DNA from: Pseudoalteromonas sp. XMcav2-N
GTDB lineage: Bacteria > Pseudomonadota > Gammaproteobacteria > Enterobacterales > Alteromonadaceae
Direction: 5' to 3'
Assembly: GCF_024124545.1 (NCBI RefSeq)
Contig: NZ_JAMXSF010000007.1
Span: 1-64,000, forward strand
DNA length: 64,000 bases
Both the position numbers and the translations under genes were made by a program. The notes under the pieces were generated by a model. It was not told the DNA's origin and ran no database searches. It saw only the letters and a program-made list of their open reading frames with translations. Shown in pieces: positions 6,001-55,853 of the stretch (within the stretch, counting starts at the first letter, position 1; the number at the start of each line of letters is the position of its first letter).

Positions 6001-6007
6001 CTTAAGC

Positions 6008-6035: not shown

Positions 6036-6048
6036 AACTGGGGTGTAA

Positions 6049-9395: not shown

Positions 9396-9411
9396 TAGTC
9401 CGGGAACTGCC

Positions 9412-9768
9412 ATGGATTACCTGACAATATTATTGATCCGATTTTATCAACGTTTTATTTCTCCACATAAAGGGTTTCGGTGTGCCCATGCGGCTGTCCA
9501 CCGGGGTGAGAGTTGCTCACATGCTGTGTTGACCATTGTAAAAGAAGATGGCCTTTGGGGAGGGTATCGCAAGATAAGGGCACGGATGCGCGCATGTAAG
9601 CAAGCTTATCTCATGCTTGAGCAATCAGCGTCAAAAGACAGGCGAAAAAAAGACGAGAGCCGTTGCGACTGCTGCGACCCAAGTGCGGGTTGTGATATTG
9701 CCAGCTGTGGTGGCAGAGGGAAAAGCTGTGATGCGGCAGATCTGTCTTGTGATTGCTGGCCGTTTTAG
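9412..9768 (+). CDS. YidD-like membrane protein insertion factor with Cys-rich tail
   Basis: The 118-residue protein begins MDYLTILLIRFYQRFISP and continues GFRCAHAAVHRGESCSHAVL. This is the YidD pattern of an amphipathic N-terminal helix followed by a conserved Cys-containing segment; YidD assists YidC-dependent insertion. I chose the ATG at 9412 because homology starts there; a longer frame would overlap the preceding gene. Canonical YidD has 70-90 residues. This one adds a tail after about residue 80 with nine or so cysteines (RCDCCD, GCDIASC, CDCW). The gene stands apart from rpmH/rnpA/yidC, where yidD usually lies, so it is probably a specialised paralogue. Its stop codon abuts that of the convergent spermidine-synthase-like gene. 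Confidence 0.75.
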   Translation: MDYLTILLIRFYQRFISPHKGFRCAHAAVHRGESCSHAVLTIVKEDGLWGGYRKIRARMRACKQAYLMLEQSASKDRRKKDESRCDCCDPSAGCDIASCGGRGKSCDAADLSCDCWPF

Positions 9769-12102: not shown

Positions 12103-12114
12103 AAAATGTCCTTT

Positions 12115-12939
12115 TTAAAGTGTGTAGAAAATTGCCACGGCAACCGATACGGCCACGCTCGCTTCAATTAAAGAAACCGCGGTATTGCCCTGGGCGATGG
12201 CCTTATTGACTCTCACCCCTGGCATCAGCACTAAATCAGTCAGTAAGCGCACTACGGGGAGTAACACCAGCGCAATGGCTGCGTCGATAAAAAATAGTGT
12301 AATGCTGTGTGACCAGTTCTCGAAAGCGCCGCGCAGTGCGTGAAACAAGATAATACCGGTGGCAATTTTGGTTGCAGCAAAACTGACGGCCGCCGCCATA
12401 TTGTTGTTTTGCAGCTCCTGGTGCAGGTCAAAATGCGTCAGGGCATCATATAGTCTGCTTGCTACCAGCAGAACCAGCTGAGCGAGCAAATAAAATACAA
12501 TGGCCGAGGCAAAACTCCCTTCACCTTTCAAAGCCCCTGCGATAATTAATCCGGCGCTGATGTAACTGGCAAATTGCGCGACTCCAACCGGCAGATTCTG
12601 ATGAGTGATAAGTTGTGTGGTGTTACAAAACTTAGGCAACAGCAGCTTGTCGTTAATCACTCGTGTTACCACCAATAACCCAAGCCCCACCAGTGAGTAA
12701 AGACTTACATTGATGAGGTCGGTCAGCAGGCCTTTACTCGGTCCCTGAAGGACTGCTACATACATCATAGTGACTGCAATTAAGAAACCACTGATTGATG
12801 TTGCCAAAGCCAGGTTTTTGTTCTGTTCAATTTCTGTGAAGGTGTTGTACGAAGTAGTCGCGTTATAGAGCCATTTTGCGACAAATAGCACCACAAGAAA
12901 GAGCCCGAAGTAGCTCAGTTCAGCCAAAGGGAAGTCCAT
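12115..12939 (-). CDS. DUF350 membrane protein (two repeats)
   Basis: The 274-residue protein has about eight hydrophobic helices arranged as two DUF350 units. Repeat signatures are EIEQNKNLALATSISGFLIA near residue 37 and QELQNNNMAAAVSFAATKIA near residue 174. DUF350 includes YjfL of E. coli, whose operon also carries a glutathionylspermidine synthase homologue (YjfC), so an association with polyamine genes is established for the family. It is the first gene of the operon here, with a promoter presumably between 12940 and 13020. Confidence 0.85.
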   Translation of the reverse strand: MDFPLAELSYFGLFLVVLFVAKWLYNATTSYNTFTEIEQNKNLALATSISGFLIAVTMMYVAVLQGPSKGLLTDLINVSLYSLVGLGLLVVTRVINDKLLLPKFCNTTQLITHQNLPVGVAQFASYISAGLIIAGALKGEGSFASAIVFYLLAQLVLLVASRLYDALTHFDLHQELQNNNMAAAVSFAATKIATGIILFHALRGAFENWSHSITLFFIDAAIALVLLPVVRLLTDLVLMPGVRVNKAIAQGNTAVSLIEASVAVSVAVAIFYTL

Positions 12940-13273
12940 GTTTGTTTCCGTATTTTACCCAAGAATGTACAAGCGGGCGATTTTAGCACAGAAAAAAAAC
13001 GAGTAAATTCTTTTAATATTGCGCTACTTCATGGTGGCTGTCCCCGATTTATGTGATGATGAAGATCAGGTGTGTCTTGATAGCTATTGGAACGGATTGA
13101 TGTTTTTAGATGTTTTACAAAAGGGCTATTTGAGTGAATCTCAAGGCTACACAGGTTTAATTTTATGGCTTGGAGGGGGCAAGCGCTCCCAGTCGGCGCG
13201 GCGACTGGGATGTTTGTCCACTTTTTTCCGATTGTCATCGCAGCATTGAAGAACAAATTAAGGGCGTTGTGTA
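12940..13273. other. Intergenic, 334 bases, with one strong hairpin
   Basis: No gene recognised. The stretch separates the DUF350 operon from a plus-strand hypothetical gene and should contain the DUF350 promoter. The only clear structure is the perfect hairpin at 13187-13210. Confidence 0.4.
13187..13210. repeat. Isolated 9-bp perfect hairpin
   Basis: TCCCAGTCG, a 6-base GC loop, then CGACTGGGA. It lies 64 bases upstream of the gene at 13274 and not downstream of any gene end, so it is not an ordinary terminator. No T-run follows directly. Confidence 0.5.
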
Positions 13274-13726
13274 ATGGGTAAAGCGAATGCGGATAAATCG
13301 AGCTTAATTCGAGTTCTATTGATTGCCGTGAGTTTGGTAGTTTCCATTATCTTTGGCTATATCAACTCAGCTAATACCCAGAAGGTTATAGCTGAGGAGG
13401 TCAGTCAACTAACTACAGGATTTCCAGAACAGGCTGAACTGGGCAGGATATTTGATGATCATTCCCGGATCGTACTTAGTATCAGCTTTTATAATATGCC
13501 AGTTGATAAAGATGAATTCGAACAGAGGAAAGTTTTTTATAAAAACAAAGTGCGCAGCTATATATGTACGAATTCTGTGTTTTATAAAAAGCTGACACAA
13601 GAGCCCTCTGCAAAAAGGGTCAATTCCAAGCCTTTTCGGTTAGAAGTAGAGCTGTCGAGTGCGGAGCCAGATCAAGCGATGGGGTTGTTGAGTTTGACGA
13701 TGGAAATGTGTGAAGCCTACCGTTAG
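13274..13726 (+). CDS. Hypothetical membrane-anchored protein
   Basis: A 150-residue protein of unknown family. A short basic N-terminus precedes a single hydrophobic helix (about 11-29, LIRVLLIAVSLVVSIIFGYI). The rest is soluble and probably periplasmic, with two Cys residues (in SYICTN and MEMCEAY) that could form a disulfide. No catalytic motif is visible. The ribosome-binding site is weak. It stands alone between divergent and convergent neighbours. Confidence 0.55.
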   Translation: MGKANADKSSLIRVLLIAVSLVVSIIFGYINSANTQKVIAEEVSQLTTGFPEQAELGRIFDDHSRIVLSISFYNMPVDKDEFEQRKVFYKNKVRSYICTNSVFYKKLTQEPSAKRVNSKPFRLEVELSSAEPDQAMGLLSLTMEMCEAYR

Positions 13727-14003
13727 AGTGAATAGGGACTGCACAGATTCAGCCTTCTTTATAATTAGCCTGATACTTCCTACACTAAGCGAAGATATTA
13801 CCCCTTCATATGCCAGATATGCCAGGGTGGGGGCTTGCGGAAAGCTCATAGGGATATTTTTATTTTATTCACAATAATTTAAACTTTTATATTGGCACAG
13901 CTATTTTGTATTTCACTATCAAAGAATGAGAGAATACCTAGTCATTCACAAGCTCAGCGCAAACCGCTGCTTCAAAAAATACTAATAATATCGAGAAGTT
14001 ATT

Positions 14004-14735
14004 ATGCAAAATGAAAGTTTCAAGGACGCCACTCGCCTAACAAAGTGGGTACGTTATATGCTGCTGGCTCAGATTTTAATGGCGATAGTGTCATTAGTGT
14101 CTCACAATCTTGAGTTCCATTTATTGTCTGATTATGAGGAAGGGGTGTATTTTTCTCAAGAGCGGGCAATAGCAGCAGACGAAGCAAATGATCAACGTCA
14201 ACAAATCGTAGCTATTTTTTACTTACTGGTTTTTAGTATATCTGGATTCTTAATTCTAAAATGGATCCATCGGGCCAATTATAACGCGCGTCAGTTGGGT
14301 GCAGAGAAAATGGAATTTACTCCAGGCTGGTCAATTGGGTATTTCTTTATCCCTGTTCTGTCTCTGTGGAAACCCTATCAGGCGATGAAAGAGATTTGGA
14401 AAACCAGCCATAACCCTACAAACTGGGTATTCGAGGGAGTAGGCTCGATTGTAGGTATATGGTGGTTTTTGTGGATCACGTCTACTATCGTGGGCCAACT
14501 TTCATTCCGTTTGTCATTGGATGCGGAAGAGCTTTCAGAGTTTATCACAGCAAACCTTGTTGCACATGTTGCAGAGGTGATTGCCATACTACTTGCTGTG
14601 GTCACGTTAAGGCTTATTGAATCTATCCATAAAGCACAAGTAACTGCATACCCTGACGTTGAACTATTTGAGAGTGAGGGGACATTAATACCAAATGAAA
14701 AGACTGAGAGTGAAGCGCACAACCCTGATCCATAA
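14004..14735 (+). CDS. DUF4328 membrane protein
   Basis: The 243-residue protein has about five membrane helices. The signature of the family is clear: WIHRANYNARQLGAEKMEFTPGWSIGYFFIPVLSLWKPYQAMKEIW (residues about 88-132, with the conserved R-A-N, P-G-W-x-x-x-x-F-x-P and P-x-Q-x-x-x-E-x-W elements). The C-terminal tail is acidic. DUF4328 proteins have no assigned reaction. The gene is monocistronic. An A/T-rich 268-base stretch precedes it. Confidence 0.85.
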   Translation: MQNESFKDATRLTKWVRYMLLAQILMAIVSLVSHNLEFHLLSDYEEGVYFSQERAIAADEANDQRQQIVAIFYLLVFSISGFLILKWIHRANYNARQLGAEKMEFTPGWSIGYFFIPVLSLWKPYQAMKEIWKTSHNPTNWVFEGVGSIVGIWWFLWITSTIVGQLSFRLSLDAEELSEFITANLVAHVAEVIAILLAVVTLRLIESIHKAQVTAYPDVELFESEGTLIPNEKTESEAHNPDP

Positions 14736-41951: not shown

Positions 41952-41975
41952 CCCAAATTGAAAAGGAATCGAAAA

Positions 41976-42560
41976 ATGTGGATTAAGAATACGCCGCTGG
42001 AAGGTCAGTACATCAGGCTTGAGCCCCTGGCTCTTGAGCATGTTGATGACCTTAAAGAAGCCGTTGAGGATGGCCAAAGCTGGAAGCTCTGGTATGCAAA
42101 TGTGCCTTCACCCCAACAGATGCAAGAGTATGTCGAAAAAGCGTTGCGTAAGGTCGCAAATGATCAGGTGACCTTCGTTGTAAGATCGATAGCAAGCGGG
42201 CACATTGTTGGTACTACCCGTTATTACGACATTAAGCCCGAGCATAAACGCGCTTCGATTGGTTATACCTGGTATAGCGCAGCGGTCAGGCGGACACCGG
42301 TCAACACGGAAGCTAAACTTTTGTTGATGGCAAACTTGTTTGAGACATGTGGTGCGTTGTCACTGGAATTTAAAACGCACTTTTTTAATCACGCATCACG
42401 ACGAGCAATCGAACGTTTAGGGGCCAAATTGGATGGCGTGCTCAGAAGCCATCAGATTTTGGCGGATGGCTCTGTTCGTGATACCGCCGTTTATTCCATT
42501 TTGGCCTCTGAGTGGCCTGCGGTGCGTAACCACCTTAAAGCGAAACTCACAGCCCGTTAA
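41976..42560 (+). CDS. GNAT N-acetyltransferase, RimJ/RimL type
   Basis: From the ATG at 41976 (preceded by AAAAGGAAT) the protein has 194 residues. Motifs: GQYIRLEPLALEHVDDL at the N-terminus, VVRSIASGHIVGTTRYYDIKPEHKRASIGYTWY with the RimL-like strand pattern, and LEFKTHFFNHASRRAIERLGAKLDGVLRSH near the C-terminus. It would acetylate an amine or peptide N-terminus. The extended frame upstream from 41958 begins with TTG and is not needed. Confidence 0.88.
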   Translation: MWIKNTPLEGQYIRLEPLALEHVDDLKEAVEDGQSWKLWYANVPSPQQMQEYVEKALRKVANDQVTFVVRSIASGHIVGTTRYYDIKPEHKRASIGYTWYSAAVRRTPVNTEAKLLLMANLFETCGALSLEFKTHFFNHASRRAIERLGAKLDGVLRSHQILADGSVRDTAVYSILASEWPAVRNHLKAKLTAR

Positions 42561-44682: not shown

Positions 44683-45297
44683 ATGGACTTTTTAAACACG
44701 GCCTTCACTTTTCCCACAGTGGTCTACTCTACATTACTGCTGATAGTACTGCTGTTTTGGCTGATTTCTTTGGCAGGCTTTGCCGACCCCGATATGCTCG
44801 ACGGCGATGCCGATATCGAAGTTGAGGGCGGTGCTGAAGGTAGCTCGTTGTGGCAAATGGGCTTTGGCGGCGTGCCTTTAACTGTGTCGATCAGTTTAAT
44901 CGTTGCACTGAGCTGGGTGGTCAGCTTTTACGCTCAAAAGCTATTTGCGTACCTGCTTGGCGATGGTGTGATGTTTTACCTGATTGGTGGCGCATTTATG
45001 CTGGGTAGCCTGTTCGTGGCATTGCCGTTGGCTGCAGCTGCCGTGCGACCTCTGCGTGGCTTATTTGAAAGTCAGCAAACAAGCAGTAAAGACGCGTTAG
45101 TCGGACTGGAATGTGTGATTGCTACCGGAAAAGTCACCGCGACATTTGGCCAGGCGCGCGTGTCCCATGAGGGAAGCGAGCAGTTAGTCGAAGTCAGATG
45201 TGATGAAGAAAATACGTTTACTCAGGGTGATAAAGCACTGCTGATTGAACACAACGCAACAACCCATAGCTATACAATCGTCACCAACCCCTGGTGA
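44683..45297 (+). CDS. YqiJ/NfeD-like OB-fold membrane protein
   Basis: A 204-residue protein with a strong site AAGGAGG upstream. Membrane helices at about 12-32, 62-82 and 90-115, an acidic loop (DPDMLDGDADIEVEGG) between the first two, and a C-terminal OB-like beta domain (about 138-200, LVGLECVIATGKVT to GDKALLIEHN). This is the YqiJ (DUF1449)/NfeD pattern. NfeD-type proteins partner with flotillin/stomatin proteins; the flotillin gene follows 67 bases later. Confidence 0.88.
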   Translation: MDFLNTAFTFPTVVYSTLLLIVLLFWLISLAGFADPDMLDGDADIEVEGGAEGSSLWQMGFGGVPLTVSISLIVALSWVVSFYAQKLFAYLLGDGVMFYLIGGAFMLGSLFVALPLAAAAVRPLRGLFESQQTSSKDALVGLECVIATGKVTATFGQARVSHEGSEQLVEVRCDEENTFTQGDKALLIEHNATTHSYTIVTNPW

Positions 45298-45364
45298 TGG
45301 CTCAACTTTAAACGGCGCCGGATAAGCGCCCGGGAATAACTTATAAAACTTATCAGGAAGAGAT

Positions 45365-47458
45365 ATGGAATTTTTAAATAACCTTGGACCTGTTTTGACT
45401 ATCGCTGGTTTGGTCATCACCGTTGTTTTTGCAGTCATTATGTTAATTGGTAAATTCTATCGAAAGGTGGAACAAGGCCATGCCCTGATCATCAATAAAA
45501 TGAAGAATGAGCCAGATGTTACAACTACAGGTGGCATTGTTTATCCGGTGGTCCACAAGATGGAAGTGATGGACATTTCGACCAAGCGCATGGTACTGGA
45601 GCGTCGCGATAGCAGTGGCTTGATCTGTAAAGACAATATTCGCGCCGACATTGCCATTACTTTTTATATCCGCGTGAACGAAAATAAAGAAGACATATTG
45701 CGGGTAGCAAAACAGGTAGGGTGTGCTCGCGCGTCTGAGCCGGAAACACTGCAAGAACTGTTTGAAGCCAAGTTCTCTGAAGCACTGAAAACCGTGGGTA
45801 AGCAGATGAACTTTGAAGAGCTGTTCACGCACCGCAATGAGTTCCGCGACAGTATCAAAGAAGTGATTGGTCAGGACCTGTCGGGCTATACATTAGAAGA
45901 TGTGGCCATTGATTATCTGGAACAAACCTCAATCCATAAACTGGATGCGAGCAATATTCTCGATGCGGAAGGTATTCGTCGTATCACTGAAAAAACCGCA
46001 GCGCAAAACGTTGAAACCAACCAGTTAAAGTGTGACGAGCAGGCGCAAATAGAGATCCAGAATCAGGCGGCACTGGAAAAAACGCTGGAAATTGAGCGTC
46101 AGAAAGAAGATGCCAAAGCGAAGCAAAAGCGTGAGATTGAAACCGTTCAGGCACGCGAAGAAGCAGAAGCTGAGCGCGTCAAGCAAGAAGAGCGCCTGAA
46201 GTCTGAAGAAGCGCGCCTTAAAGCCGATGAAGCAATCCAGATTGCAGAGCAGAACAGGCAGCGTGAAGTCGATATTGCTGAGCAAAATCGTCTGCGTGTG
46301 CTGGCCATTGAAGAAGAAAAAGTCGCCCGTTCGCGTGAAATTGAAGTCATTGAGCGTGAAAAAGAAACCGAGATCCTGCGCATTAACAAAGAAAAAGCGC
46401 TGGAAGTGGAGCGTAAAGAGATTGCTGACGTGCAACGTGACCGTGTTGCGGTTGAGAAAACCGTAGCCCAAGAGCAAGAGCGCATTAAAGACGTGCAGAC
46501 ACTGGCTGCTGCCGAGCGTGACAAGCAAGCCATTGTGATCCGTGCCCAGGCTGAAGCAGAAGAAGCTTTGGTGAAAGACATTGAAGCGGCAAAAGCACAA
46601 GAGCAGGCGGCTGATTTTAAAGCCCGTGAAATGGAAAAAATGGCTGAAGCTGAGCTGCGTATCGCTAACCAGCAGGCAGAGTCGAAGAAAATTCTCGCAG
46701 AAGCAACGCAGGTTGAAGCGGCTGCTTCAGGTCTGGCGGAAGCCGATGTGATCAAGGCTAAAGCACAAGCCAATGCATTGCAGGGTGAAACAGACGCCAA
46801 AGTACTACAGCAGAAGATGGAAGCAGAAGCGCACGGTAAGCGCGATATTGGCCTGGCAGATGCCGAAGTACAAACTGCCATGGCAGATGCGATGGAGAAA
46901 CAGGGTGAAGCGGAAGCGATTAACCTTGAGCGCAGAATGTCAGCCGAAGCCAAAGGTCTGGAAGAGAAACTACAGGCTCTGAACGCCATGGATAAAGACG
47001 CCCGTGACTACGAAGGCTTTACGCTGCAACTGAACCAGCAAAAAGAGTTGACGCTGGCACAGCTGGAAGCGAACAAAGACATTGCAGCTCACCAGGCACA
47101 AGTGCTGGCTAAGGCACTGAGCGATGCAGACATCAACTTTATGGGGGGTGACGGTCAGTTCTTCAATCAGTTTATGAACGCCATTACTCTGGGTAAATCT
47201 ATCGATGGTTTGGTTAACGAAAGCCAGACAATGCAGACCGTGTTTAAAGACCACCTTAACGGTGAGCGGAATCTGATGGATGACCTCAAAGGCGTGCTGG
47301 CAGGTGCCAATGCTTCGTCTGAGACCCTGAAGAACATCAATATGAGTAAGTTTTTCCAGCAACTGAGCAACACATCAGATGCCGAAAAACAGCAATTGCT
47401 TAGCCTGCTTGGCAATTCACTGAACGGTAATTCAGCTAAAAACACTACACAGGAATAA
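45365..47458 (+). CDS. Flotillin-like SPFH-domain protein (YqiK type)
   Basis: The 697-residue protein has one N-terminal membrane helix (about 10-31), an SPFH/Band 7 domain (about 33-200, with VYPVVHKMEVMDISTKRMVLERRD) and a very long Glu/Ala/Lys-rich coiled coil (about 210-590). A Gly-containing tail (GGDGQFFNQFMNAITLGKSI) follows. Flotillins form membrane microdomains that organise other complexes. It is longer than E. coli YqiK (about 550 residues), with the extra length in the coiled coil. An 89-base gap leads to the AAA+ giant gene. Confidence 0.93.
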   Translation: MEFLNNLGPVLTIAGLVITVVFAVIMLIGKFYRKVEQGHALIINKMKNEPDVTTTGGIVYPVVHKMEVMDISTKRMVLERRDSSGLICKDNIRADIAITFYIRVNENKEDILRVAKQVGCARASEPETLQELFEAKFSEALKTVGKQMNFEELFTHRNEFRDSIKEVIGQDLSGYTLEDVAIDYLEQTSIHKLDASNILDAEGIRRITEKTAAQNVETNQLKCDEQAQIEIQNQAALEKTLEIERQKEDAKAKQKREIETVQAREEAEAERVKQEERLKSEEARLKADEAIQIAEQNRQREVDIAEQNRLRVLAIEEEKVARSREIEVIEREKETEILRINKEKALEVERKEIADVQRDRVAVEKTVAQEQERIKDVQTLAAAERDKQAIVIRAQAEAEEALVKDIEAAKAQEQAADFKAREMEKMAEAELRIANQQAESKKILAEATQVEAAASGLAEADVIKAKAQANALQGETDAKVLQQKMEAEAHGKRDIGLADAEVQTAMADAMEKQGEAEAINLERRMSAEAKGLEEKLQALNAMDKDARDYEGFTLQLNQQKELTLAQLEANKDIAAHQAQVLAKALSDADINFMGGDGQFFNQFMNAITLGKSIDGLVNESQTMQTVFKDHLNGERNLMDDLKGVLAGANASSETLKNINMSKFFQQLSNTSDAEKQQLLSLLGNSLNGNSAKNTTQE

Positions 47459-47547
47459 ACCCTGCAACGGGGCGCTGCCCCAATGTTTTTTAAGGTGCGC
47501 GATAACGAACCGGTATTGCGCACCGGATATGATTACAGGAAAGTGAT

Positions 47548-50500
47548 ATGACGGAACCAACAAGCCAGGACACTGCATCACACAGCGCGCTGGAGCAGGG
47601 CTCCTATCAACTGATAAAGCGCCGTCTGAGTAACTTCGGTAGTGAGCTACGCACTCAGGTGGATGACCTCAATAGCCAGCGTGTTGATGCGTTTGGCAGC
47701 ACTGAGCTGAAAGTACAGGGCCGTGCCCGGGTTCGCACTGAGCACAATTGTATTCCCAGAGACATAGTACTGATTGGCGACAAACTGATCTTTGCATACA
47801 ACGTCTTTATGGGCCTCAAGCAAAGCACCCACGTCAGTGATGTATTCAGTGTGCAAAAGCTGGTGCAGCAGGATGACCACTATGAGGTTGAACCTTACCC
47901 TTCAGAGACCAAGTTTCTGACCGACGCCCGCTTTTTGCGAGACTTTGAAGAGCTTTATACCTATTACAAAGAAACCCGTTTGCAGCACCTGTTTGTACAG
48001 GGCGGCAAGCTGTTTGCGCTGTTCCAGATTGGTGACAGGCTGAGCGATGTCAGGGTATTCCGTTGGCAAATTGCCACGGACAATACGCTCGACTATATCG
48101 ACAACCGTGGTGAACGAGACATCTCAGCGCACAGCGGTTTTGATTTTGAATGGATTAAGACCGACCGTGCCCAGCATGAGGAAGGCCGACACCCGCACAT
48201 TAATGTGCTCGACAAAGTGTTTGTCGAAACCGTTGGTGGCGACCTGACTATCAAAATAGAGAACAATACGGAAACTGGCGAAGGTATTTATAGCGAGCCG
48301 GTAGAAGACAGCAATCAGTCATTGGCAGACTGTGAGTTGTATTATGCTCAGGTGGGGGAGTTGATCCTGCTCAGAGTATTACCCTATCGCGAAAAGCAGT
48401 GGCGTTACTTTATCTATAATTGCCGCAGTCAACAGGTAGTGAGACAGGATGCCATCGGTCAGGCGTGTGTCCAGTTGCCTGAAGACCACGGTATCATTTT
48501 CCCGGGTGGATACTATTTGCAATCCGGACAGACGCGCTATTTTGAAGATAAAATAGAGGACTTGGAGTTTCATCGTCAGCTGAAATCGCCTAATGGTGAA
48601 GACGTGCTGTACGTTTTTTATGAGCCTACCGAAGGTCGCTATGCGCTGTTTGCTTACAACATCATCGAAAAGAATCTGCAAAACCCCATTTATTGTCATG
48701 GCTATGGCATTTATGAAGACGGCTTAACGCTGACGTTTAAAGCGGAGCAGGAAGAAGCTGAGCGGGTTCATCCCATCCAGATCTGGCAAAGCCCATTTTG
48801 TTCGGCAGAGTTTGCCGCCAATGCGCCGGCACCCACAAGCGGCCTTGGCCGTATAGGCAACCCGGATCTGGTCAGAGCTATCTCTGATTTATACAGCGTC
48901 TGTAAGGCCATCAGTGAACAAAACCCCAGTGTCTTTCATTACGAGGACCTGATCTCTCATACCCGTGGAATACTTGACCGTTACCACTGGCTGGCAGAAG
49001 CGGATTTCAGCACCATTAATTCGCAGCTGCATGACATCTTTGAAACCTCAGAACAGGTGCTGGACGAGTTTGAAAAAGTCAGCCAGATCCAGCAAAGTGC
49101 CCGACAAGCCGAAGCGGATATTGAACAGGAAAGCCATCAGGTACTGCGTGAGGTACGCCCTGACAGCTTTAAACTGGCCAGCGAGTTTGTGGCCAGTCTG
49201 GATGCGCTGAAACTGCTCAAAGGGAAAGTGATCAGTCTGGAGGAAGTGAAATACATTAATCTGGATGTACTCAGTACCATTCAAGCCAATATTGATGAGC
49301 AGACTCGCATACTCAGCCATGCCACGGCGATTTTCCTGCAGCAGGATAAAGCTCTTGCGCCTTATCATGAGCAGTTGCAGGAGATTAATGAGAAAAGTGA
49401 GCAAAGCGACAGTGTCACTGAGCTCAAAGGGTACCTTGGCTCACTGGAAACGCTGGGCGGTGAGCTGGATCTGCTCAACCACACTATGCTGGACCTGGAG
49501 ATTGAAGACAGCCGGGTAAGAACACAAATTCTTGAAGACGTGAGCGGCGTCTATGCGCTGGTTAACCGTGCTAAAGCGGCCGTTGAGATCCGCCGTAAAA
49601 GCCTCGGGAGTGTTGAGGCCAAGGCCGAATTTGCCGCGCGCTTTAAGCTGTTCAGTCAGAGCATCACCAGCGCCCTGAGCGCCGCTAAAACGCCTGAACA
49701 ATGTGACGAGCAGCTATCTCGATTGCTGATCCAACTTGAGGAGCTGGAGTCCCAGTTCAGCGAATATGATGAGTTTCTGGGTGAGATCCTGGCAAAACGG
49801 GATGATGTTTACGAAAGCTTTGAAGCGCATAAACAGCAGCTGATTGACGAACGCCAACGTCGGGCACTGAATCTGGCTACCGCAGCCGAGCGGATTTTGC
49901 AGGGGGTAAGCCGGCGCACCCAAAGCTTTACTGAGCTGGACCAGATAAACAGTTATTTTGCCTCTGATCCTATGATCAGTAAATTACGCAGTCTGACTCA
50001 GGAGCTAAAAGAGCTTGGCGACGAGGTTAAAGCTGATGACATTGCCGCTAAGCTTAAAGCCAGTAAAGATCAGGGGATCCGCTCGCTCAGAGATAAACAG
50101 GATATCTATAGCGATGGTGGCAAAACCGTCAAAATCGGCAAGCATGGCTTTAGTGTTAATAAACAGGTGCTGGACCTGACGTTGTTGCCTCGCGATGACG
50201 AGTTAATGCTGCACTTGACCGGTACCGAGTACTTCGATGTTATTCCCGATCAGCAAGCCCGTTCACAGTTGGCACAGGCCGCGGATTACTGGGCGCAAAC
50301 CTTGCCTTCCGAAAGTGCAGAGATTTATCGCGGTGAGTTTTTGGCTGCGCAGATCCTGCGTGCGGCGCAACGAGGTGAGTCTGGCTTGTCGATGGAACAG
50401 CTCCAGCGTGCACAGCAAGAAGACTCGTTACTGACTTTAGTGCAAGCGTTTGCTGAGCCCAGATATCAGGAAGGCTATGAAAAAGGCATTCATGACTTTG

Positions 50501-53331
50501 ATGCAACCCGGATCCTGAGTGCGTTGCTGAAACAGAAAAGCGAGCTGGGGTTGCTGATCTATCCCGCCAGCTGCCGGGTGATGGCGCAGCTGTTTGTCTC
50601 TGCGTTAGAGCGTGAGAAATTACAACCGTTGCAGCAACAAGCCACTCAGGCGCAATTGATGGCCACGACGCTGAACGATCCGCGCTTTAACCAGTTACTG
50701 ATTGGTGAGCTAAGTGAGCAGATGAGTGATTTTGCAGCGCAGCTGGGTGATTACACTAAGAGTCTGGCACAGTATTCTGCGCAGTTGAGCGCTGAATATC
50801 TCATTCAGGTGTTGGCAGGCCGTAACGGCCTGCCGCAGTTTGAAGTGCAGGCAGAGGCACGTAAACTGGCTGAGCAGTTCCAGAGTATGGCTAAAGCCAA
50901 AGGCTTCTGGCAGACGCTGCAAGAGACCTTTGCTGAGTTAACCAGCTTGTCAGAGAAGTGCCGCCTGGCTTCCGGCTGGCTGAACGCTTATGGCGAGCAA
51001 CACAATGCGGACCTCGATTGTCAGATTGAAGCGGCGAGCTACCTGTTGCTGGTGGAGCACCAGGCACTTAGTTATCAGGTGCAGGATGTTCAGACGCAGA
51101 CGCACGTATCCGGTTTGATGGGGCAACACCTGCGTATTGAAGAGCAGACTCTGGCGCTTGATTATGCTGAATTTTTGGCCCGTACCAGTGCTTACATTGA
51201 GCAGGCTTTACCAGCTTATCAGCGCTATCAGCAGTTAAAAGCGGATGTGCTGCAGGCGCAAAAAGCGCGCCTGCAACTGGAAGAGTTTAAGCCCAGACCG
51301 CTGAGCTCATTTGTGCGTAACCAGCTCATTGATAAGGTCTATTTTCCGATCATTGGCGATAACCTGGCCAAGCAAATCGGTGCCTCAGGCAGTGCTAAGC
51401 GTACCGACTTAATGGGCATGTTGTTGCTGATCTCGCCGCCGGGATACGGTAAAACCACTTTGATTGAATATGTGGCAAACCGTCTGGGGCTGACCTTTGT
51501 TAAGGTGAACTGCCCGTCTATTGGTCATGATCAGGTCTCTTTAGATCCGTCACAGGCGATCAATGCGACAGCCGCCAAAGAGATAGATAAGATCAACCAG
51601 AGCTTCGAAATGGGCAACAACGTAATGCTCTATCTGGATGACATTCAGCATACCAACCCGGAGTTTTTACAGAAGTTTATTTCGCTGTGTGACGGCTCAA
51701 GGCGCATTGACGGGGTATGGAATGGAAAGAGTAAAACCTACGATCTGCGTGGTAAAAAGTTTGCGGTGGTGATGGCGGGTAACCCGTATACCGAATCGGG
51801 TGAAAGCTTTAAGATCCCGGACATGCTGGCGAACCGGGCTGACATTTACAATCTGGGCGATACACTGGCCGGGTGTGAGCAAGAGTTTGCCATGAGCTTT
51901 TTGGAGAACGCACTCACTTCCAATGCCGTGTTGGCGCCACTGGCAAACCGCAATATGGCTGATTTGTACAAGCTGGTGCGCATTGCACAAGGGGAAGACA
52001 TATCTCTGAACGAGCTGGAATATGGTTACTCTCAGGCCCAGGCGAATGAAATTACAGCGGTACTTCAGAAGCTGCTGGTCATTCGCGAAACCGTGCTTAA
52101 AGTAAACGCCCAATATATTGCCTCGGCTGCGCAGGACGATAATTATCGTACTGAGCCACCATTTAAGTTGCAGGGCAGTTACCGCAACATGAACAAAATG
52201 GCCGAAAAGGTAGTCGCCGCCATGAATCAGGAAGAACTGGAAAACCTGATCCAGGATCACTACCGGGGTGAAGCGCAAACACTGAGTAAGGGCAGTGAAG
52301 AAAACCTGCTTAAACTGGGAGAATTGCGCAATACCCTGACAGCACAGGAAAATGAGCGCTGGGCTCAGATCAAGGCGGACTATGCGCGCCTTAATCGGGC
52401 TAATGACGCGGGAAGTCCGGCATTGCTGGCGGTTGAGCAGTTAGCCGAAGTGAGCGGTGCGTTGTCACAGATAGCCTCTCGTCTGGATAAATCACAGTTA
52501 AGTCACAATTACAGTGAGCAGTTTGAAGGATTGCGAGCCATTCTTGGTGAACAGGGCGTGACCGCACAGCTGCAACAACTGTCCCGACAGGCTGAGCAGC
52601 CAGCGATCCTGAAGGCGTTGGAGCAACTTACTGAACAGCACAAGGCGCAAAACCAGCAACTACCGCACTGGCTGGAGACCATCACTGAGACAATAAACTC
52701 GGCGGCGCAGAACAGTGGCAGTGCCACTCGTCAGGGGCAGGCTGAGCTCAAAGAAGTACTCGAAGTGCTGGTGGCTTATCAACAGTCAGGGCAAAGTGAG
52801 CTGGTGCAGACACTGAGCGAGACGGTTGGTCAGGCGTTGGCTCAAAGCGATAAGCTTGCTGCCAGCAATCAGGCAACGCTGCTCTCAGCGCTGGACTCAG
52901 TGCTCAGGCAGCAGCAAACCAACATGTCGGCTCAGGCTCAGGATGTATCGAATGCACTGGCGCAGTCCGTTGCAGGGTTAGCACATCATCAGAGCGCGCT
53001 GGATAACGTGTTGGCGTCACTGAGCAGTCAGCAACAATCTGAACAGATGAAACAAAGTGATGCCCAGCAGGTACTTATCGCCGACTTAACGGCGCAGCTG
53101 GCACGCATTCAGTCGGCTAATGTACAGGTAGACAACTACAGTGATGATGCCAGCGCCCAGGCGTTAGCAGCGGTCACTGAGTTACTGAGCCAAATGCATC
53201 AGGCGTCACAGCAGGGTAATGATGCGGGGTTGCGGGCGCAACTCACAGAGATCCTTGATAAGCTTGATAATTTGCAGCTGGCGCCTGCTGACAGTAATGA
53301 ACCAAGAGGAGAAAATCCTTATATGTTATAA
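47548..53331 (+). CDS. Giant DUF3686/AAA+ ATPase (annotated elsewhere as DNA repair ATPase)
   Basis: A 1927-residue cytoplasmic protein. The N-terminal 450 residues match the DUF3686 pattern (NFGSELRTQVDDLNSQR, GSTELKVQGRARVRTEHN, QRDIVLIGDKL-like region). Residues about 480-900 are coiled coil. An AAA+ core lies at about 1285-1450: Walker A PPGYGKTT near 1300, Walker B MLYLDDIQ near 1360, sensor-1 VVMAGNPY near 1410. The last 350 residues are Gln/Ala/Ser-rich coiled coil. Relatives occur beside flotillin genes, as here. The name DNA repair ATPase rests on weak similarity, and no DNA-binding domain is visible. It may act as a remodelling motor recruited to flotillin domains. Confidence 0.88.
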   Translation: MTEPTSQDTASHSALEQGSYQLIKRRLSNFGSELRTQVDDLNSQRVDAFGSTELKVQGRARVRTEHNCIPRDIVLIGDKLIFAYNVFMGLKQSTHVSDVFSVQKLVQQDDHYEVEPYPSETKFLTDARFLRDFEELYTYYKETRLQHLFVQGGKLFALFQIGDRLSDVRVFRWQIATDNTLDYIDNRGERDISAHSGFDFEWIKTDRAQHEEGRHPHINVLDKVFVETVGGDLTIKIENNTETGEGIYSEPVEDSNQSLADCELYYAQVGELILLRVLPYREKQWRYFIYNCRSQQVVRQDAIGQACVQLPEDHGIIFPGGYYLQSGQTRYFEDKIEDLEFHRQLKSPNGEDVLYVFYEPTEGRYALFAYNIIEKNLQNPIYCHGYGIYEDGLTLTFKAEQEEAERVHPIQIWQSPFCSAEFAANAPAPTSGLGRIGNPDLVRAISDLYSVCKAISEQNPSVFHYEDLISHTRGILDRYHWLAEADFSTINSQLHDIFETSEQVLDEFEKVSQIQQSARQAEADIEQESHQVLREVRPDSFKLASEFVASLDALKLLKGKVISLEEVKYINLDVLSTIQANIDEQTRILSHATAIFLQQDKALAPYHEQLQEINEKSEQSDSVTELKGYLGSLETLGGELDLLNHTMLDLEIEDSRVRTQILEDVSGVYALVNRAKAAVEIRRKSLGSVEAKAEFAARFKLFSQSITSALSAAKTPEQCDEQLSRLLIQLEELESQFSEYDEFLGEILAKRDDVYESFEAHKQQLIDERQRRALNLATAAERILQGVSRRTQSFTELDQINSYFASDPMISKLRSLTQELKELGDEVKADDIAAKLKASKDQGIRSLRDKQDIYSDGGKTVKIGKHGFSVNKQVLDLTLLPRDDELMLHLTGTEYFDVIPDQQARSQLAQAADYWAQTLPSESAEIYRGEFLAAQILRAAQRGESGLSMEQLQRAQQEDSLLTLVQAFAEPRYQEGYEKGIHDFDATRILSALLKQKSELGLLIYPASCRVMAQLFVSALEREKLQPLQQQATQAQLMATTLNDPRFNQLLIGELSEQMSDFAAQLGDYTKSLAQYSAQLSAEYLIQVLAGRNGLPQFEVQAEARKLAEQFQSMAKAKGFWQTLQETFAELTSLSEKCRLASGWLNAYGEQHNADLDCQIEAASYLLLVEHQALSYQVQDVQTQTHVSGLMGQHLRIEEQTLALDYAEFLARTSAYIEQALPAYQRYQQLKADVLQAQKARLQLEEFKPRPLSSFVRNQLIDKVYFPIIGDNLAKQIGASGSAKRTDLMGMLLLISPPGYGKTTLIEYVANRLGLTFVKVNCPSIGHDQVSLDPSQAINATAAKEIDKINQSFEMGNNVMLYLDDIQHTNPEFLQKFISLCDGSRRIDGVWNGKSKTYDLRGKKFAVVMAGNPYTESGESFKIPDMLANRADIYNLGDTLAGCEQEFAMSFLENALTSNAVLAPLANRNMADLYKLVRIAQGEDISLNELEYGYSQAQANEITAVLQKLLVIRETVLKVNAQYIASAAQDDNYRTEPPFKLQGSYRNMNKMAEKVVAAMNQEELENLIQDHYRGEAQTLSKGSEENLLKLGELRNTLTAQENERWAQIKADYARLNRANDAGSPALLAVEQLAEVSGALSQIASRLDKSQLSHNYSEQFEGLRAILGEQGVTAQLQQLSRQAEQPAILKALEQLTEQHKAQNQQLPHWLETITETINSAAQNSGSATRQGQAELKEVLEVLVAYQQSGQSELVQTLSETVGQALAQSDKLAASNQATLLSALDSVLRQQQTNMSAQAQDVSNALAQSVAGLAHHQSALDNVLASLSSQQQSEQMKQSDAQQVLIADLTAQLARIQSANVQVDNYSDDASAQALAAVTELLSQMHQASQQGNDAGLRAQLTEILDKLDNLQLAPADSNEPRGENPYML

Positions 53332-53354
53332 GGCCGCACTGTGCGGCCTTATAA
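53326..53354. terminator. Shared terminator between AAA+ and YiaA/B genes
   Basis: TTATAAGGCCGCAC, centre T, GTGCGGCCTTATAA: 14-bp arms (about 12 bp once a real loop forms). It overlaps the stop of the AAA+ gene and lies 8 bases from the convergent stop. Confidence 0.75.
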
Positions 53355-53361
53355 TCTCAGC

Positions 53362-53808
53362 TTACTCCTCTCCTTCCGTGCTATTCGCGGATGGTTCGGG
53401 CGTATCGTGCACTAAGCTCTGACTATCCCGAACGTTCTTTTGAACGGCAATAGCGGCATACAGACTCATCAGATACGCGATACCATAAAAGCCCTTTTCA
53501 CTGAGCAGTAACTCGGCGCGCCACAGGGCAAATACCAGTAAGACGATGGCCAGCACGGTGGAGAGCAGGCTCAATAAATAATAGAGGTTTGAGGTCGGGA
53601 TTTGCTCCTGCCTGTCACGAATACACTTTTGCAGTGATACTGCGGAAAACAGGCCATAGAGCAGGGCAATCAGGTAATAGCCTTTTTCATTTAAGGCCAT
53701 TTGTGCGTTGAACAGGCCAATCAGGTAACAGGCAATACCAATCAGCAGGGCTGCTACAGAGGCCAGTCTAAATGCTTTACTCGGTGCATAGGGAGTGGTC
53801 GTTGTCAT
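53362..53808 (-). CDS. YiaA/YiaB-type membrane protein (two repeats)
   Basis: The 148-residue protein has four hydrophobic helices in two similar units: LNEKGYYLIALLYGLFSAVSLQKCIRDRQEQ and LSEKGFYGIAYLMSLYAAIAVQKNVRDSQS. The shared KG[YF]Y-x-I-A and QK-x-[IV]RD motifs are the YiaA/B two-helix signature. An acidic tail follows. It lies 11 bases after the DUF2145 gene, so the three minus-strand genes are one operon facing the flotillin operon. Confidence 0.85.
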   Translation of the reverse strand: MTTTTPYAPSKAFRLASVAALLIGIACYLIGLFNAQMALNEKGYYLIALLYGLFSAVSLQKCIRDRQEQIPTSNLYYLLSLLSTVLAIVLLVFALWRAELLLSEKGFYGIAYLMSLYAAIAVQKNVRDSQSLVHDTPEPSANSTEGEE

Positions 53809-53819
53809 ATTGCGTTCTC

Positions 53820-54632
53820 CTACAGCGGGTATTTCAATTCAACCGGGCCATCCGGTGTCAGCACGGTACTGTGGGCCAGCAACTGGTTGTTCTTTAGATA
53901 TCGGGCAATAGAGGTAAAAGTGGTGGTTTTCACCTTACCCTGGTGGTCACTACTGTCGATCCCATCGTTAAAGAACGAGCCCAGCGCCAGTTTAAAGCGG
54001 CTGACATTGAGTGTTTGCGGCTCAAAATAGGCCCGCGTATTCACTTTTAGCTGTGCCATGTCCGTGGTGTTATATAAAGCCGCGTTGATCACATTCAGTG
54101 TATGCTCGGTGCAATTTTGCTTCTGGTTATTAAATGGGTTGGCTACCACCGAGTAACGCGGATTATGGACCTTGGCAGGTACTCCCTGCGCAAACGCATC
54201 CAGCAATTTTTGTTGCAATGCCCGCGTGGGTATTGCAATGGCCGCTTTGAGGTCATGCACTGACCAGAAAAAGTCCGTTGGATAATCTACTATCAGCTGG
54301 CTGGTGCCGGGGTCGTCGTTCAACTGATATAAATTGTGAATGGCATAACCCTGCTTTTTCTCACCCTCTGTGGTCGTGAGTTCGGAGTAGACCGCCAGTG
54401 CAACATGAGTAAATTCAATGCCCTCAGGTAAGTCGCCCTCGGGACGACCGACCCGGCCGATAACAAATACGTGCGCGCCTTGTTGTGCGCTGTAGCGCTC
54501 AACCTGTTTGGCAAACTGAGCAATCTGGTTAGCTTCAAAGCGGGCTTCGCCACTGTTTTGGCTGCCTGCAAACGTATGTGTGCTGGCACATATTGTTGCG
54601 GCCACGCACAATCCTTGTATCCAGTTCATCAT
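53820..54632 (-). CDS. Exported DUF2145 protein
   Basis: A 270-residue protein with a signal peptide (1-22, ending HTFAG). Pattern: VFVIGRVGRPEGDLPEGIEFTHVALAVY, DYPTDFFW and NPFNNQKQNCTEHTLNVINAALYNT. The Cys in QNCTEH, the His in FTHVAL and an acidic residue could make an NlpC/P60-like (permuted papain) site, as suspected for DUF2145; not proven. Its stop codon shares a base with the start region of the small upstream gene. Confidence 0.8.
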   Translation of the reverse strand: MMNWIQGLCVAATICASTHTFAGSQNSGEARFEANQIAQFAKQVERYSAQQGAHVFVIGRVGRPEGDLPEGIEFTHVALAVYSELTTTEGEKKQGYAIHNLYQLNDDPGTSQLIVDYPTDFFWSVHDLKAAIAIPTRALQQKLLDAFAQGVPAKVHNPRYSVVANPFNNQKQNCTEHTLNVINAALYNTTDMAQLKVNTRAYFEPQTLNVSRFKLALGSFFNDGIDSSDHQGKVKTTTFTSIARYLKNNQLLAHSTVLTPDGPVELKYPL

Positions 54633-54982
54633 TACAGCTCCTCGTTAAGGGCTTGTGCCGGTGCAGGTCCTGCAATTAATACATCGTCACAAATAGGCAA
54701 AGGTTTTGGGCTGGCGGCGTCAGATAAGTCTGCTGCGGCCTTGGTACTGGCCATACCTACTGAAATTGCACTGAACCCGACTACTGCAACGGGGATAGAA
54801 ACTGCAATCATAGACACTTTTGCGCCTTCAACGGCGCTTTCACCAACGCTAAGTGCACTGTACTTACTGGCCTGACTGCCATGATGGCTGGCCTGTGATG
54901 CATGGCTGTCATTAGCCACTGCCTGCGTACAAACCATACCGAATAGTGCTGAACATAAAACTGAACGAAGTAAGTGAGTCAT
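54632..54982 (-). CDS. Small exported protein, partner of DUF2145
   Basis: From the ATG at 54980-54982, which has a good AGGAGGG site, the product has 116 residues. Signal peptide ends VANDS. A His/Ser/Ala-rich segment follows (SHASQASHHGSQASKYS), then a hydrophobic helix (about 60-85). I do not recognise a family. It is the first gene of the three-gene operon and shares one base with the DUF2145 gene. Confidence 0.65.
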   Translation of the reverse strand: MTHLLRSVLCSALFGMVCTQAVANDSHASQASHHGSQASKYSALSVGESAVEGAKVSMIAVSIPVAVVGFSAISVGMASTKAAADLSDAASPKPLPICDDVLIAGPAPAQALNEEL

Positions 54983-55076
54983 ATCTTTCCCTCCTGATAA
55001 GCAAACCATGTGGCTTGCGTTGACTTGCTTTCTAATTTACCGGAGGGATTGAATTTGTATACTCAAAATTAATATG

Positions 55077-55096
55077 TATAGTAATTAGAGACTATA
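55077..55096. promoter_or_regulatory. Inverted repeat in the XRE/operon divergent region
   Basis: TATAGT, 8 bases, ACTATA, between the small exported gene and the XRE regulator. Several further GTATA-like elements flank it. Candidate site for the adjacent regulator. Confidence 0.35.
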
Positions 55097-55115
55097 AGTA
55101 TAGGAATTTAATACT

Positions 55116-55853
55116 TTGAGCCAGATCCCATTAATTACTTCAACGCTTAAACAGCTATTGAAGCAACACAAACTGACCTATAAAGAGGTTGCCAATGCAC
55201 TGGATATGAGCGAGGCCAATGTGAAGCGGGTCTTTGCCAGCGAGCAGTTTAGCTTGCAGCGACTTGAGCAGATCTGTGATCTGATGCAATTGTCTTTGGC
55301 GGACTTGTTTGCACTTGGGGAGCAAAAGCAGTCACTGGTCAGCCAGCTCACGCAGGCACAGGAGCAGGAGTTGATGGAGAATCCGAAACTGTTTTTGGTG
55401 GCTGTGTGTGTACGTGATGGCTGGCAGTTTGAAGACATCATTTCTCAGTATCAGATAGATGAACTTGAGTGCATCCGCTTGCTGGCGCGATTAGATAATC
55501 TGAATATGATCCAGCTGTTGCCTAACAATCGCTATAAATCTTTAGTAGCCCAGGATTTTCGCTGGATCCCCGGCGGCCCGCTTGAGCGGTTTATCGAACA
55601 GCAGGTGTTGACCAAGTTTTTACAGGGAGATTTTAACCGTGAGGATAGCTTTCGGTTTTATTTACGCGGAAGCTACAGTGATGCCACCATCAGTGTGGTA
55701 CGGCGTCGTCTTGAGCAGCTCACCAAAGAAGTTGCTCAGCTTAACCAACAGGATGCACGGTTACCTCTGGACAAGCGTCAGAGTGTGGGGTTATTCATGG
55801 CGATGCGCCCCTGGCAACTTGGGTTATTTAATGATCTCAGGCGGGATGATTAA
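55116..55853 (+). CDS. XRE-type HTH regulator
   Basis: A 245-residue protein starting at a TTG. The N-terminal HTH is LKQLLKQHKLTYKEVANALDMSEANVKRVFASEQFSLQRLEQICDLMQLSLADLF. The rest (about 80-245) is a helical region that I do not recognise, with REDSFRFYLRGSYSD and RRRLEQLTKEVAQL. It is divergent from the DUF2145 operon, which it probably regulates. The C-terminal part may bind a ligand. Confidence 0.85.
   Translation: MSQIPLITSTLKQLLKQHKLTYKEVANALDMSEANVKRVFASEQFSLQRLEQICDLMQLSLADLFALGEQKQSLVSQLTQAQEQELMENPKLFLVAVCVRDGWQFEDIISQYQIDELECIRLLARLDNLNMIQLLPNNRYKSLVAQDFRWIPGGPLERFIEQQVLTKFLQGDFNREDSFRFYLRGSYSDATISVVRRRLEQLTKEVAQLNQQDARLPLDKRQSVGLFMAMRPWQLGLFNDLRRDD

What the first reader, a model, noticed from the sequence alone, without database searches (positions are those of the whole stretch)
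44683..55853. Flotillin / YqiJ / giant DUF3686-AAA+ locus facing a YiaAB-DUF2145-small protein operon with an XRE regulator
Seen: three plus-strand genes (YqiJ-like, flotillin with extra-long coiled coil, 1927-residue AAA+) face three minus-strand genes (small exported, DUF2145, YiaA/B) with a divergent XRE gene. Known: NfeD and flotillin cooperate; DUF3686 proteins are listed as DNA repair ATPases with little evidence. Inference: the AAA+ has no visible DNA-binding domain and two large coiled coils, so it may be docked to the flotillin scaffold. The set looks like a membrane stress or anti-phage locus that has not been described in detail.
Basis: partly seen in the sequence, partly recalled or inferred. 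Interest (0 to 1): 0.7.

Follow-up and report, generated by a model that had tools for sequence, protein, structure and literature searches.

The report
Membrane-stress scaffold and giant ATPase genes
Three neighbouring genes for a membrane scaffold and a giant ATP-driven protein look like a relocated part of a known bacterial membrane-stress operon, and the opposite-facing genes beside them are an unrelated neighbour.

Summary
The genes are real, at the stated coordinates. The plus-strand genes (YqiJ-like, SPFH/flotillin-like, 1927-residue DUF3686 AAA+) form one unit: same order in 21 of 21 DUF3686-positive relatives, both partners near the AAA+ in 67 of 68 named loci with upstream room. The minus-strand YiaA/DUF2145/small-protein set with its XRE gene is separate; it touches the trio only in the Pseudoalteromonas rubra group. 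The trio is the published "abbreviated" form of a PspA operon (YjfI-PspA-YqiJ-flotillin-AAA+; mSystems 2024). By published description P. aeruginosa bac is of this kind; its PA3728-PA3732 genes rise on lytic phage infection. Here YjfI-PspA lies on another contig. Relatives keep it in cis, two in one ten-gene row; one shows an apparent scar where flotillin and most of the ATPase were lost together. AlphaFold2 suggests beta-propeller, helical stalk and AAA+ module (best folds RuvB, NorQ/CbbQ). The partner flotillins lack the usual flotillin C-terminal motifs (0 of 86; 5 of 5 controls have them), so that tail may be the docking site. Best reading: ATP-driven remodeller on a flotillin-like scaffold in the PspA envelope-stress response. 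Known kind; mechanism untested. "Anti-phage" and "DNA repair" are not supported.

The parts
44683..45297 (+). YqiJ/NfeD-like membrane protein, three hydrophobic stretches plus weak YqiJ OB-fold match
   Evidence: ORF; PF07290 E 0.0051, below cut-off; hydropathy; alignment A3; directly upstream of the flotillin in 21 of 21 relatives
45365..47458 (+). SPFH/flotillin-like protein: one N-terminal hydrophobic stretch, SPFH region, long coiled coil, non-canonical C-terminus
   Evidence: ORF; Band_7 in 8 of 21 alignment members; hydropathy; canonical flotillin C-terminal motifs 0 of 86. Coiled coil judged by eye from the sequence
47144..47164 (+). GGDGQFF element in the flotillin C-terminal tail (residues 594-600), proposed as part of an ATPase docking site
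   Evidence: place checked; looser motif in 74 of 86 full-length members, stricter one in 62 of 86 and in none of five YqiK-type controls; role inferred
47469..47524 (+). two hairpins between flotillin and ATPase genes, the first followed by six T: possible attenuator
   Evidence: fold z -2.7; first one listed, but the number of terminator-like sites there is at chance level (13 found, 12.5 expected)
47548..53331 (+). giant AAA+ protein, 1927 aa
   Evidence: ORF; PF12458, PF25472, PF00004
47644..48987 (+). DUF3686 region (residues 33-480), beta-rich and probably a beta-propeller in the AlphaFold2 model
   Evidence: Pfam; model mean pLDDT 85; propeller proteins among the Foldseek hits, all with low TM-scores; beta-propeller also in PMC11237479
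48841..50106 (+). helical/coiled-coil stalk (residues 432-853), holding DUF7902 (601-685)
   Evidence: model; Pfam
51433..51459 (+). Walker A (residues 1296-1304, SPPGYGKTT)
   Evidence: 1296-1303 invariant in 93 of 93 aligned sequences; place checked
51637..51642 (+). Walker B acidic pair, Asp1364-Asp1365 (Asp where AAA+ proteins usually have the catalytic Glu)
   Evidence: D-D in 93 of 93 aligned sequences; 'usually Glu' is recalled
52468..53328 (+). variable C-terminal tail (residues 1641-1927)
   Evidence: 3-15% identity to the window per 40-residue block across 92 relatives, up to 85% gaps
53326..53354 (.). perfect inverted repeat, 13-base arms, between the ATPase end and the YiaA/B stop of the convergent operon; terminator-like boundary
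   Evidence: not listed by the consensus scan
53362..55009 (-). NOT part of the trio: YiaA/B, DUF2145, small exported-like protein
   Evidence: near the trio only in L021 (the window), L022 and L122
55116..55853 (+). NOT part of the trio: XRE-type regulator divergent from the DUF2145 operon
   Evidence: beside DUF2145 in all 14 DUF2145 genomes of the 60 relatives

Best explanation
The three plus-strand genes are the abbreviated form of the PspA/flotillin/AAA+ envelope-stress operon (the kind to which P. aeruginosa bac belongs by description). Proposed working: the SPFH protein and its YqiJ/NfeD-like partner form a membrane-bound scaffold on the inner membrane. The giant ATPase docks on it, through its propeller and helical stalk and perhaps through the scaffold's unusual C-terminal tail, and uses ATP to load, remodel or take apart assemblies at damaged membrane, PspA polymers or stalled membrane proteins being the likeliest clients. 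PspA and its CesT/Tir-like partner YjfI are supplied in trans from G000:C10. Shown here: gene identity, gene order, near-obligate pairing, the separate PspA operon, domain layout (partly by prediction). Inferred: docking, ATP hydrolysis, client, link in trans.
For: DUF3686 in 21 of 60 relatives. The AAA-type flotillin (54-100% identity in the SPFH part) is in exactly those 21 and in 0 of the other 39, five of which carry only a 28-31% relative. Same gene order in 21 of 21. FLOT and YqiJ on the same strand in the locus in 67 of 68 named loci with at least 3 kb upstream; the exception, Moraxella boevrei L130, has the flotillin elsewhere in its assembly, with one in-frame stop. YjfI and PspA both within the locus in 37 of 65 with at least 5 kb upstream. 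All 21 trio-positive relatives have YjfI (DUF2170), against 25 of 39 trio-negative: 10 have it in cis, and in the other 11 it sits beside PspA elsewhere. G017 and G034 have DUF350-spermidine synthase-YjfI-PspA-DUF4178-like-RHH-TM138-YqiJ-FLOT-AAA in one row. In five relatives (luteoviolacea group) the row is GNAT-YjfI-PspA-RHH-YqiJ-FLOT-AAA; the window has GNAT, a reversed DUF4153 gene, then YqiJ-FLOT-AAA. G003 keeps the PspA operon and part of YqiJ (profile positions 58-182 of 207) followed by a match to the ATPase tail only (1640-1832 of 1835); flotillin and the rest of the ATPase are gone. Distance matrices FLOT-AAA r 0.90 (n 91) against PspA-AAA 0.76 (n 45). ATPase motifs; folds. Literature: PMC11237479; bac operon co-transcribed, PMC10948618; PA3728-PA3732 up on phage infection, PMC12041424; B. 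subtilis SPFH protein YdjI needed to bring PspA to the membrane, PMC8581546 (abstract).
Against: No contact between flotillin and ATPase was tested, by model or otherwise. The YjfI-PspA pair is not in cis in 11 of 21 relatives and not in the locus in 28 of 65 named loci, one of which has PspA alone, so PspA need not be the client. Gene linkage and tree likeness also follow from shared ancestry, and 5 of the 91 flotillin ORFs in the matrices are partial or ran over. Walker B is Asp-Asp in all 93 sequences, so hydrolysis is not certain. Deleting the P. aeruginosa flotillin paFlo3 gave about 20% less biofilm and no clear change in the other traits of the passages I saw (PMC13086221). That PA3728 is a DUF3686 protein rests on the label 'ATPase' and its place, not on a sequence compared here. 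The link in trans is inferred from gene content. Foldseek TM-scores are low for both models.
Confidence: 0.6

Rival explanations
1. The ATPase is a flotillin-confined unfoldase or chaperone for membrane-protein quality control, comparable to HflK/C with FtsH, and has nothing to do with PspA polymers.
For: YjfI-PspA not in cis in 11 of 21 relatives and not in the locus in 28 of 65 named loci. FLOT-AAA tree likeness exceeds PspA-AAA (different n). Nearest folds include NorQ/CbbQ, which act on protein complexes (their role is recalled). Listing abstracts only: FloA microdomains stabilise unfolded proteins (PMC11222466), HflK/C-FtsH assembly (PMC13220708), both.
Against: YjfI is present in all 21 trio-positive relatives, beside PspA in each, and the pair is the commonest upstream neighbour in the named loci; no protease domain in Pfam.
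Confidence: 0.25
2. The DUF3686 protein is a DNA-repair ATPase, as its Pfam description says, and sits beside the flotillin by chance.
For: Pfam description 'ATPase involved in DNA repair'; RuvB is the top Foldseek match of the AAA+ part; weak RuvB profile matches, E 1.2e-4 to 5.9e-4.
Against: Partner flotillin in 21 of 21 relatives and 67 of 68 named loci; no DNA-binding domain in Pfam; RuvB and NorQ/CbbQ score alike; no paper in the held library contains 'DUF3686'.
Confidence: 0.04
3. The locus is an anti-phage defence system.
For: PA3728-PA3732 are up in all phage-infected samples at both time points, 8 and 24 min, in P. aeruginosa (PMC12041424); patchy presence, 17 of 36 genomes in the genus and 8 of 398 in a phylum sample; a few plasmid records, 3 of 12 predicted mobilizable.
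Against: For the trio the only PADLOC match is Cas13b at E 0.067 to the coiled coil (the XRE gene has weak matches, best 2.1e-4); 0 of 50,697 phage records, 12 of 72,556 plasmid records, several of them over 1.6 Mb; phage-shock proteins are induced by phage without conferring immunity (recalled).
Confidence: 0.07
4. All seven genes form one system under the XRE regulator.
For: Adjacent in G000, G033 and P. rubra L122; in G004, G013, G023 and G027 the matched domains lie 22-27 kb apart on one contig, in G009 118 kb.
Against: Next to each other in 2 of 14 DUF2145 genomes; 12 of 21 trio genomes lack DUF2145 and 5 of 14 DUF2145 genomes lack the trio; inverted repeat between the convergent ends; XRE beside DUF2145 in 14 of 14, near or far from the trio.
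Confidence: 0.02

Closest known systems
CesT/Tir-PspA operons with band-7/flotillin, YqiJ/YuaF and beta-propeller AAA+ (mSystems 2024, PMC11237479)
   Same: Same three families; [quoted passage not shown]
   Different: Here the separate PspA operon is located in the same genome (L043), the spermidine-synthase and flotillin groups are seen in one row in two relatives, and an apparent deletion scar is seen in a third. I did not see the paper's figures or supplements, so these may be there
P. aeruginosa bac operon, bacABCDEF (PMC2587700, PMC10948618)
   Same: By description: YjfI-type, PspA-type, NfeD-like and 76-kDa SPFH genes in one co-transcribed operon; PA3728, beside them, is called ATPase
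   Different: Window lacks bacA and bacB in cis; no sigma-54-like site of at least 10 of 12 matches upstream of YqiJ (best 7, inconclusive)
YqiJ-YqiK / YuaF-YuaG (NfeD2-SPFH2) pairs (PMC2636767, passages)
   Same: NfeD-like gene paired with a flotillin-like gene
   Different: No AAA+ partner in the passages read; YqiK-type proteins of five relatives are about 100-150 aa shorter and keep the canonical C-terminal motifs
B. subtilis PspA with SPFH protein YdjI and YdjG/H (PMC8581546, abstract)
   Same: SPFH protein needed to put PspA on the membrane
   Different: Other gene families; no AAA+ partner in the abstract
ESCRT-III/Vps4
   Same: PspA belongs to the ESCRT-III superfamily (PMC10936438, passages); a AAA+ ATPase often accompanies it here
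   Different: The ATPase has no MIT domain in Pfam; top folds are RuvB and NorQ/CbbQ, classic AAA proteins such as FtsH, p97 and spastin rank lower

Membership tests
PspA/flotillin/AAA+ envelope-stress operons (abbreviated form) | YqiJ-like, band-7 coiled-coil protein and AAA+ with N-terminal propeller in one row | tested here: met
   YqiJ by weak Pfam hit and position, propeller by prediction
PspA/flotillin/AAA+ envelope-stress operons (abbreviated form) | CesT/Tir-PspA dyad present in the genome | tested here: met
   G000:C10, L043
PspA/flotillin/AAA+ envelope-stress operons (abbreviated form) | response to envelope stress | not testable with these tools
   only literature on P. aeruginosa
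Canonical flotillins (SPFH2: YqiK/YuaG) | SPFH/Band 7 domain | tested here: met
   8 of 21 alignment members; none for the window protein alone
Canonical flotillins (SPFH2: YqiK/YuaG) | flotillin C-terminal motifs (KPLExIxxIKI, YRxNAP types, taken from the controls) | tested here: not met
   0 of 86 full-length AAA-type members; both motifs in 5 of 5 YqiK-type controls. Hence 'flotillin-like', not a canonical flotillin
AAA+ ATPases | Walker A, sensor 1, Arg finger, sensor 2 | tested here: met
   invariant K1302, N1412, R1430, R1546 in 93 of 93; their roles assigned by position
AAA+ ATPases | Walker B Asp-Glu | tested here: not met
   Asp-Asp in 93 of 93. Fold and Pfam still place it among AAA+ proteins; hydrolysis is the open point
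Vps4-type ATPases | MIT domain | tested here: not met
   no Pfam match
DNA-repair ATPases | DNA-binding domain | tested here: not met
   no Pfam match
Anti-phage defence systems | match to a described system | tested here: not met
   PADLOC, trio proteins
Anti-phage defence systems | protects against phage | not testable with these tools
   induction by phage in P. aeruginosa only

The most novel reading that the evidence does not exclude
The DUF3686 protein is a bacterial counterpart of Vps4: a scaffold-bound ATPase that strips or loads PspA (ESCRT-III type) polymers, held at the membrane by a dedicated flotillin whose usual C-terminal cap has been replaced by an ATPase-binding tail. If so, bacteria have their own, unrelated solution to ATP-driven turnover of ESCRT-III polymers, found in several phyla.
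Probability: 0.2. Interest if true: 0.8.

Novelty: new member of a known kind. Interest (0 to 1): 0.38.

Why it matters
[quoted passage not shown] passage). This operon supplies a candidate ATPase with a dedicated membrane scaffold, a candidate docking element, and natural variants (PspA in cis, PspA in trans, an apparent double loss in G003) that make the question testable. It also warns that 'DNA repair ATPase', the name some records give these proteins, is probably misleading.

Tried and rejected
Rejected: seven-gene set. DNA repair. Defence system. Solved relatives by sequence: none for the flotillin (E up to 0.01), YqiJ (up to 1) or ATPase (up to 0.001) profiles. Sigma-54 site: no site of at least 10 of 12 upstream of YqiJ in the window (best 7); over all loci three such sites, no clear excess over background; the Pseudomonas loci, which should have served as a positive control, gave none either, so the test is inconclusive. 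Promoter and terminator consensus scan at chance level. The stricter flotillin-tail motif was missed in 24 of 86, so a looser one was counted (74 of 86). PA3729 in an eLife pull-down table at background level, PA3730 in an LL-37 table and PA3728 in sputum variants were too thin to use. SO1377 of Shewanella is paired with a DUF1449 gene and no ATPase is mentioned in the passages read, so its iron phenotype was not carried over. DUF3686 in a phylum-wide sample: 8 of 398, so the family is rare overall and common in this genus.

The distance matrices left out L039 and the same five, and kept partial ORFs. Alignment A1 left out L039. Structure alignments used 47 and 46 sequences, window included, of the 93 at hand. 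Script labels: D2491 stands for the DUF4178-like gene (PF13785 E 7.6e-5, below its cut-off), S108 for the gene I take to be the RHH gene of PMC11237479, TM138 for an unnamed membrane protein.


Full report
OBSERVATION. One search confirms all seven ORFs at the stated coordinates, and Pfam supports most of the names: DUF3686 (E 1.8e-197), DUF7902 and AAA in the 1927-residue protein, YiaAB, DUF2145, and an XRE-type HTH. The YqiJ name rests on a sub-threshold OB-fold hit (0.0051) and on gene order. The flotillin itself matches no Band_7 model, but 8 of the 21 proteins in its alignment do, best 1.8e-12. The window lies in a Pseudoalteromonas of the P. rubra group: P. rubra S2599 (L122) is 93-94% identical at the DNA level over about 25 kb.

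ONE UNIT, NOT SEVEN GENES. DUF3686 is in 21 of 60 relatives: 17 of 36 in the genus (own genome included) and 4 of 24 outside it. The matching flotillin, searched by its SPFH part, is at 54-100% identity in exactly these 21 and in none of the other 39, five of which have only a 28-31% relative. YqiJ-flotillin-ATPase stand in this order in 21 of 21; in one of them (G014, L039) the ATPase ORF is split in two. The exception, Moraxella boevrei (L130), carries the flotillin outside the fetched 25 kb, with one in-frame stop. By contrast DUF2145 is in 14 of 60 relatives and next to DUF3686 in 2 (G000, G033). Nine genomes have both, 12 only DUF3686, 5 only DUF2145. In four of the nine the matched domains lie 22-27 kb apart and in G009 118 kb, so the two units share a neighbourhood in part of the genus. 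Of the 80 named loci only the P. rubra one has DUF2145 or YiaA near the ATPase. XRE stands beside DUF2145 in all 14, and their shared spacer holds conserved AGTAT/ATACT-type repeats, so the XRE gene most likely governs that operon. A perfect 13-base inverted repeat separates the two convergent ends, though the consensus scan did not list it.

THE MISSING HALF. Ten of the 21 relatives have YjfI (DUF2170, CesT/Tir-like) and PspA beside the trio, nine on the same strand upstream and one divergent. All 21 have YjfI, one match each, and in the 11 unlinked genomes it stands beside PspA at another place. In the genus this gives 8 linked and 9 unlinked, and the 9 unlinked ones all have DUF350-spermidine synthase-YjfI-PspA-DUF4178-like-RHH. 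In this genome that operon is at G000:C10 (L043 6148-11012). G017 and G034 have the whole row followed by TM138-YqiJ-flotillin-ATPase. In five relatives (luteoviolacea group) the order is GNAT-YjfI-PspA-RHH-YqiJ-flotillin-ATPase; the window has GNAT (41958-42560), a reversed DUF4153 gene and then YqiJ, so it looks like the same site after loss or displacement of YjfI-PspA-RHH. G003 has no DUF3686 or matching SPFH hit in its genome; it keeps the row from DUF350 to TM138, part of YqiJ (profile positions 58-182 of 207) and then a match to the ATPase tail only (1640-1832 of 1835, 64 bits, a low-complexity stretch), which reads as a deletion scar. Trio-negative genomes have YjfI in 25 of 39, so PspA-YjfI exists without the trio, while no trio was seen without PspA-YjfI among these 60.

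THE PROTEINS. Across 93 ATPase sequences the Walker A lysine, Asn1412 (sensor 1), Arg1430 and Arg1546 (sensor 2) are invariant, and Walker B is Asp-Asp. AlphaFold2 models (mean pLDDT 85 and 87) show an N-terminal beta-rich domain, a helical stalk, and a AAA+ module with a hairpin before sensor 1. Best matches of the second are RuvB, NorQ and CbbQ at E 3e-5 to 2e-4, with TM by query up to about 0.2: a class resemblance, not a function. The last 290 residues are hardly conserved. The partner flotillins are longer than YqiK-type ones and 0 of 86 full-length ones carry the C-terminal motifs that 5 of 5 YqiK-type controls carry; 74 of 86 have a GG-rich element. Distance matrices of flotillin and ATPase correlate at 0.90 (n 91), YqiJ and ATPase 0.91 (n 84), PspA and ATPase 0.76 (n 45); all beat 500 shuffles, but shared ancestry is not removed.

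WHAT IS KNOWN. mSystems 2024 (PMC11237479; passages, section 19 read whole) describes this operon type, the PLD variant (17 of 66 named loci with at least 3 kb downstream), the abbreviated form and, for the spermidine-synthase group, a final RHH gene. The bac operon of P. aeruginosa has YjfI-type, PspA-type, NfeD-like and SPFH genes and two more, co-transcribed; bacA and PA3731 (bacB) mutants are impaired in biofilm and rhamnolipids, and loss of BacA raises the other five proteins 6.1- to 13.5-fold (PMC2587700 and PMC10948618, passages and part of the discussion of the latter; NfeD and SPFH labels from PMC13086221). PA3728, next to the flotillin gene PA3729, is called 'ATPase' in PMC8190622; that it is a DUF3686 protein, and bacE, is my inference. 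PA3728-PA3732 are named 'phage shock proteins' and are up in all phage-infected samples at both time points in PMC12041424 (passages). Deleting the flotillin alone had small effects (PMC13086221, passages). In B. subtilis an SPFH protein is needed to place PspA on the membrane (PMC8581546, abstract). No paper in the held library contains DUF3686, and the listings showed me no experiment on the ATPase; not every listed paper was opened.

VERDICT. The trio is a known kind of PspA-linked envelope-stress module. Its most likely work is ATP-driven remodelling on a flotillin-like scaffold; the client, PspA polymers or damaged membrane proteins, is undecided.

Noticed in passing
window 55010-55115 and relatives L022, L122, L045-L056: Spacer between XRE and the small-protein/DUF2145 operon has conserved GTATAC/AGTAT-N9-ATACT-type repeats, a likely XRE operator.
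   Followed up: partly
window 53820-54632: DUF2145 is placed among papain-like enzymes, with serine in place of cysteine, in PMC10318531 (passages); the 15 members here instead keep an NC.EH and an FTH motif, each position in at least 14 of 15, so a cysteine enzyme is possible.
   Followed up: partly
L151 (G003) 5512-6613, minus strand: Apparent deletion scar: part of YqiJ followed by a match to the ATPase tail only; flotillin and the rest of the ATPase absent, PspA operon present.
   Followed up: partly
L039 (G014) 9218-14705: ATPase ORF split into two overlapping ORFs, whereas a close relative (L040) has it whole; frameshift or assembly error.
   Followed up: no
L073 6942-7601: A second, short flotillin-like ORF precedes the full flotillin in a Saccharospirillaceae genome.
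   Followed up: no
L024, L036, L023, L151, L067: An unnamed protein of about 140 aa (TM138), hydrophobic by eye and without Pfam match in the one member scanned, sits in or near the operon in these five loci.
   Followed up: partly
window 47459-47547: Stable hairpins between flotillin and ATPase genes (z -2.7), maybe lowering ATPase expression.
   Followed up: partly
G048:C1 1849443-1851402, L156: A YqiJ/YqiK-type pair follows a weakly matching pspA-like gene (E 6.4e-17), in a genome without DUF3686.
   Followed up: no
plasmid NC_009444.1 92419-97494: A Pseudomonas fluorescens SBW25 plasmid record of 425 kb carries a DUF3686-type ATPase annotated 'DNA repair ATPase'.
   Followed up: no
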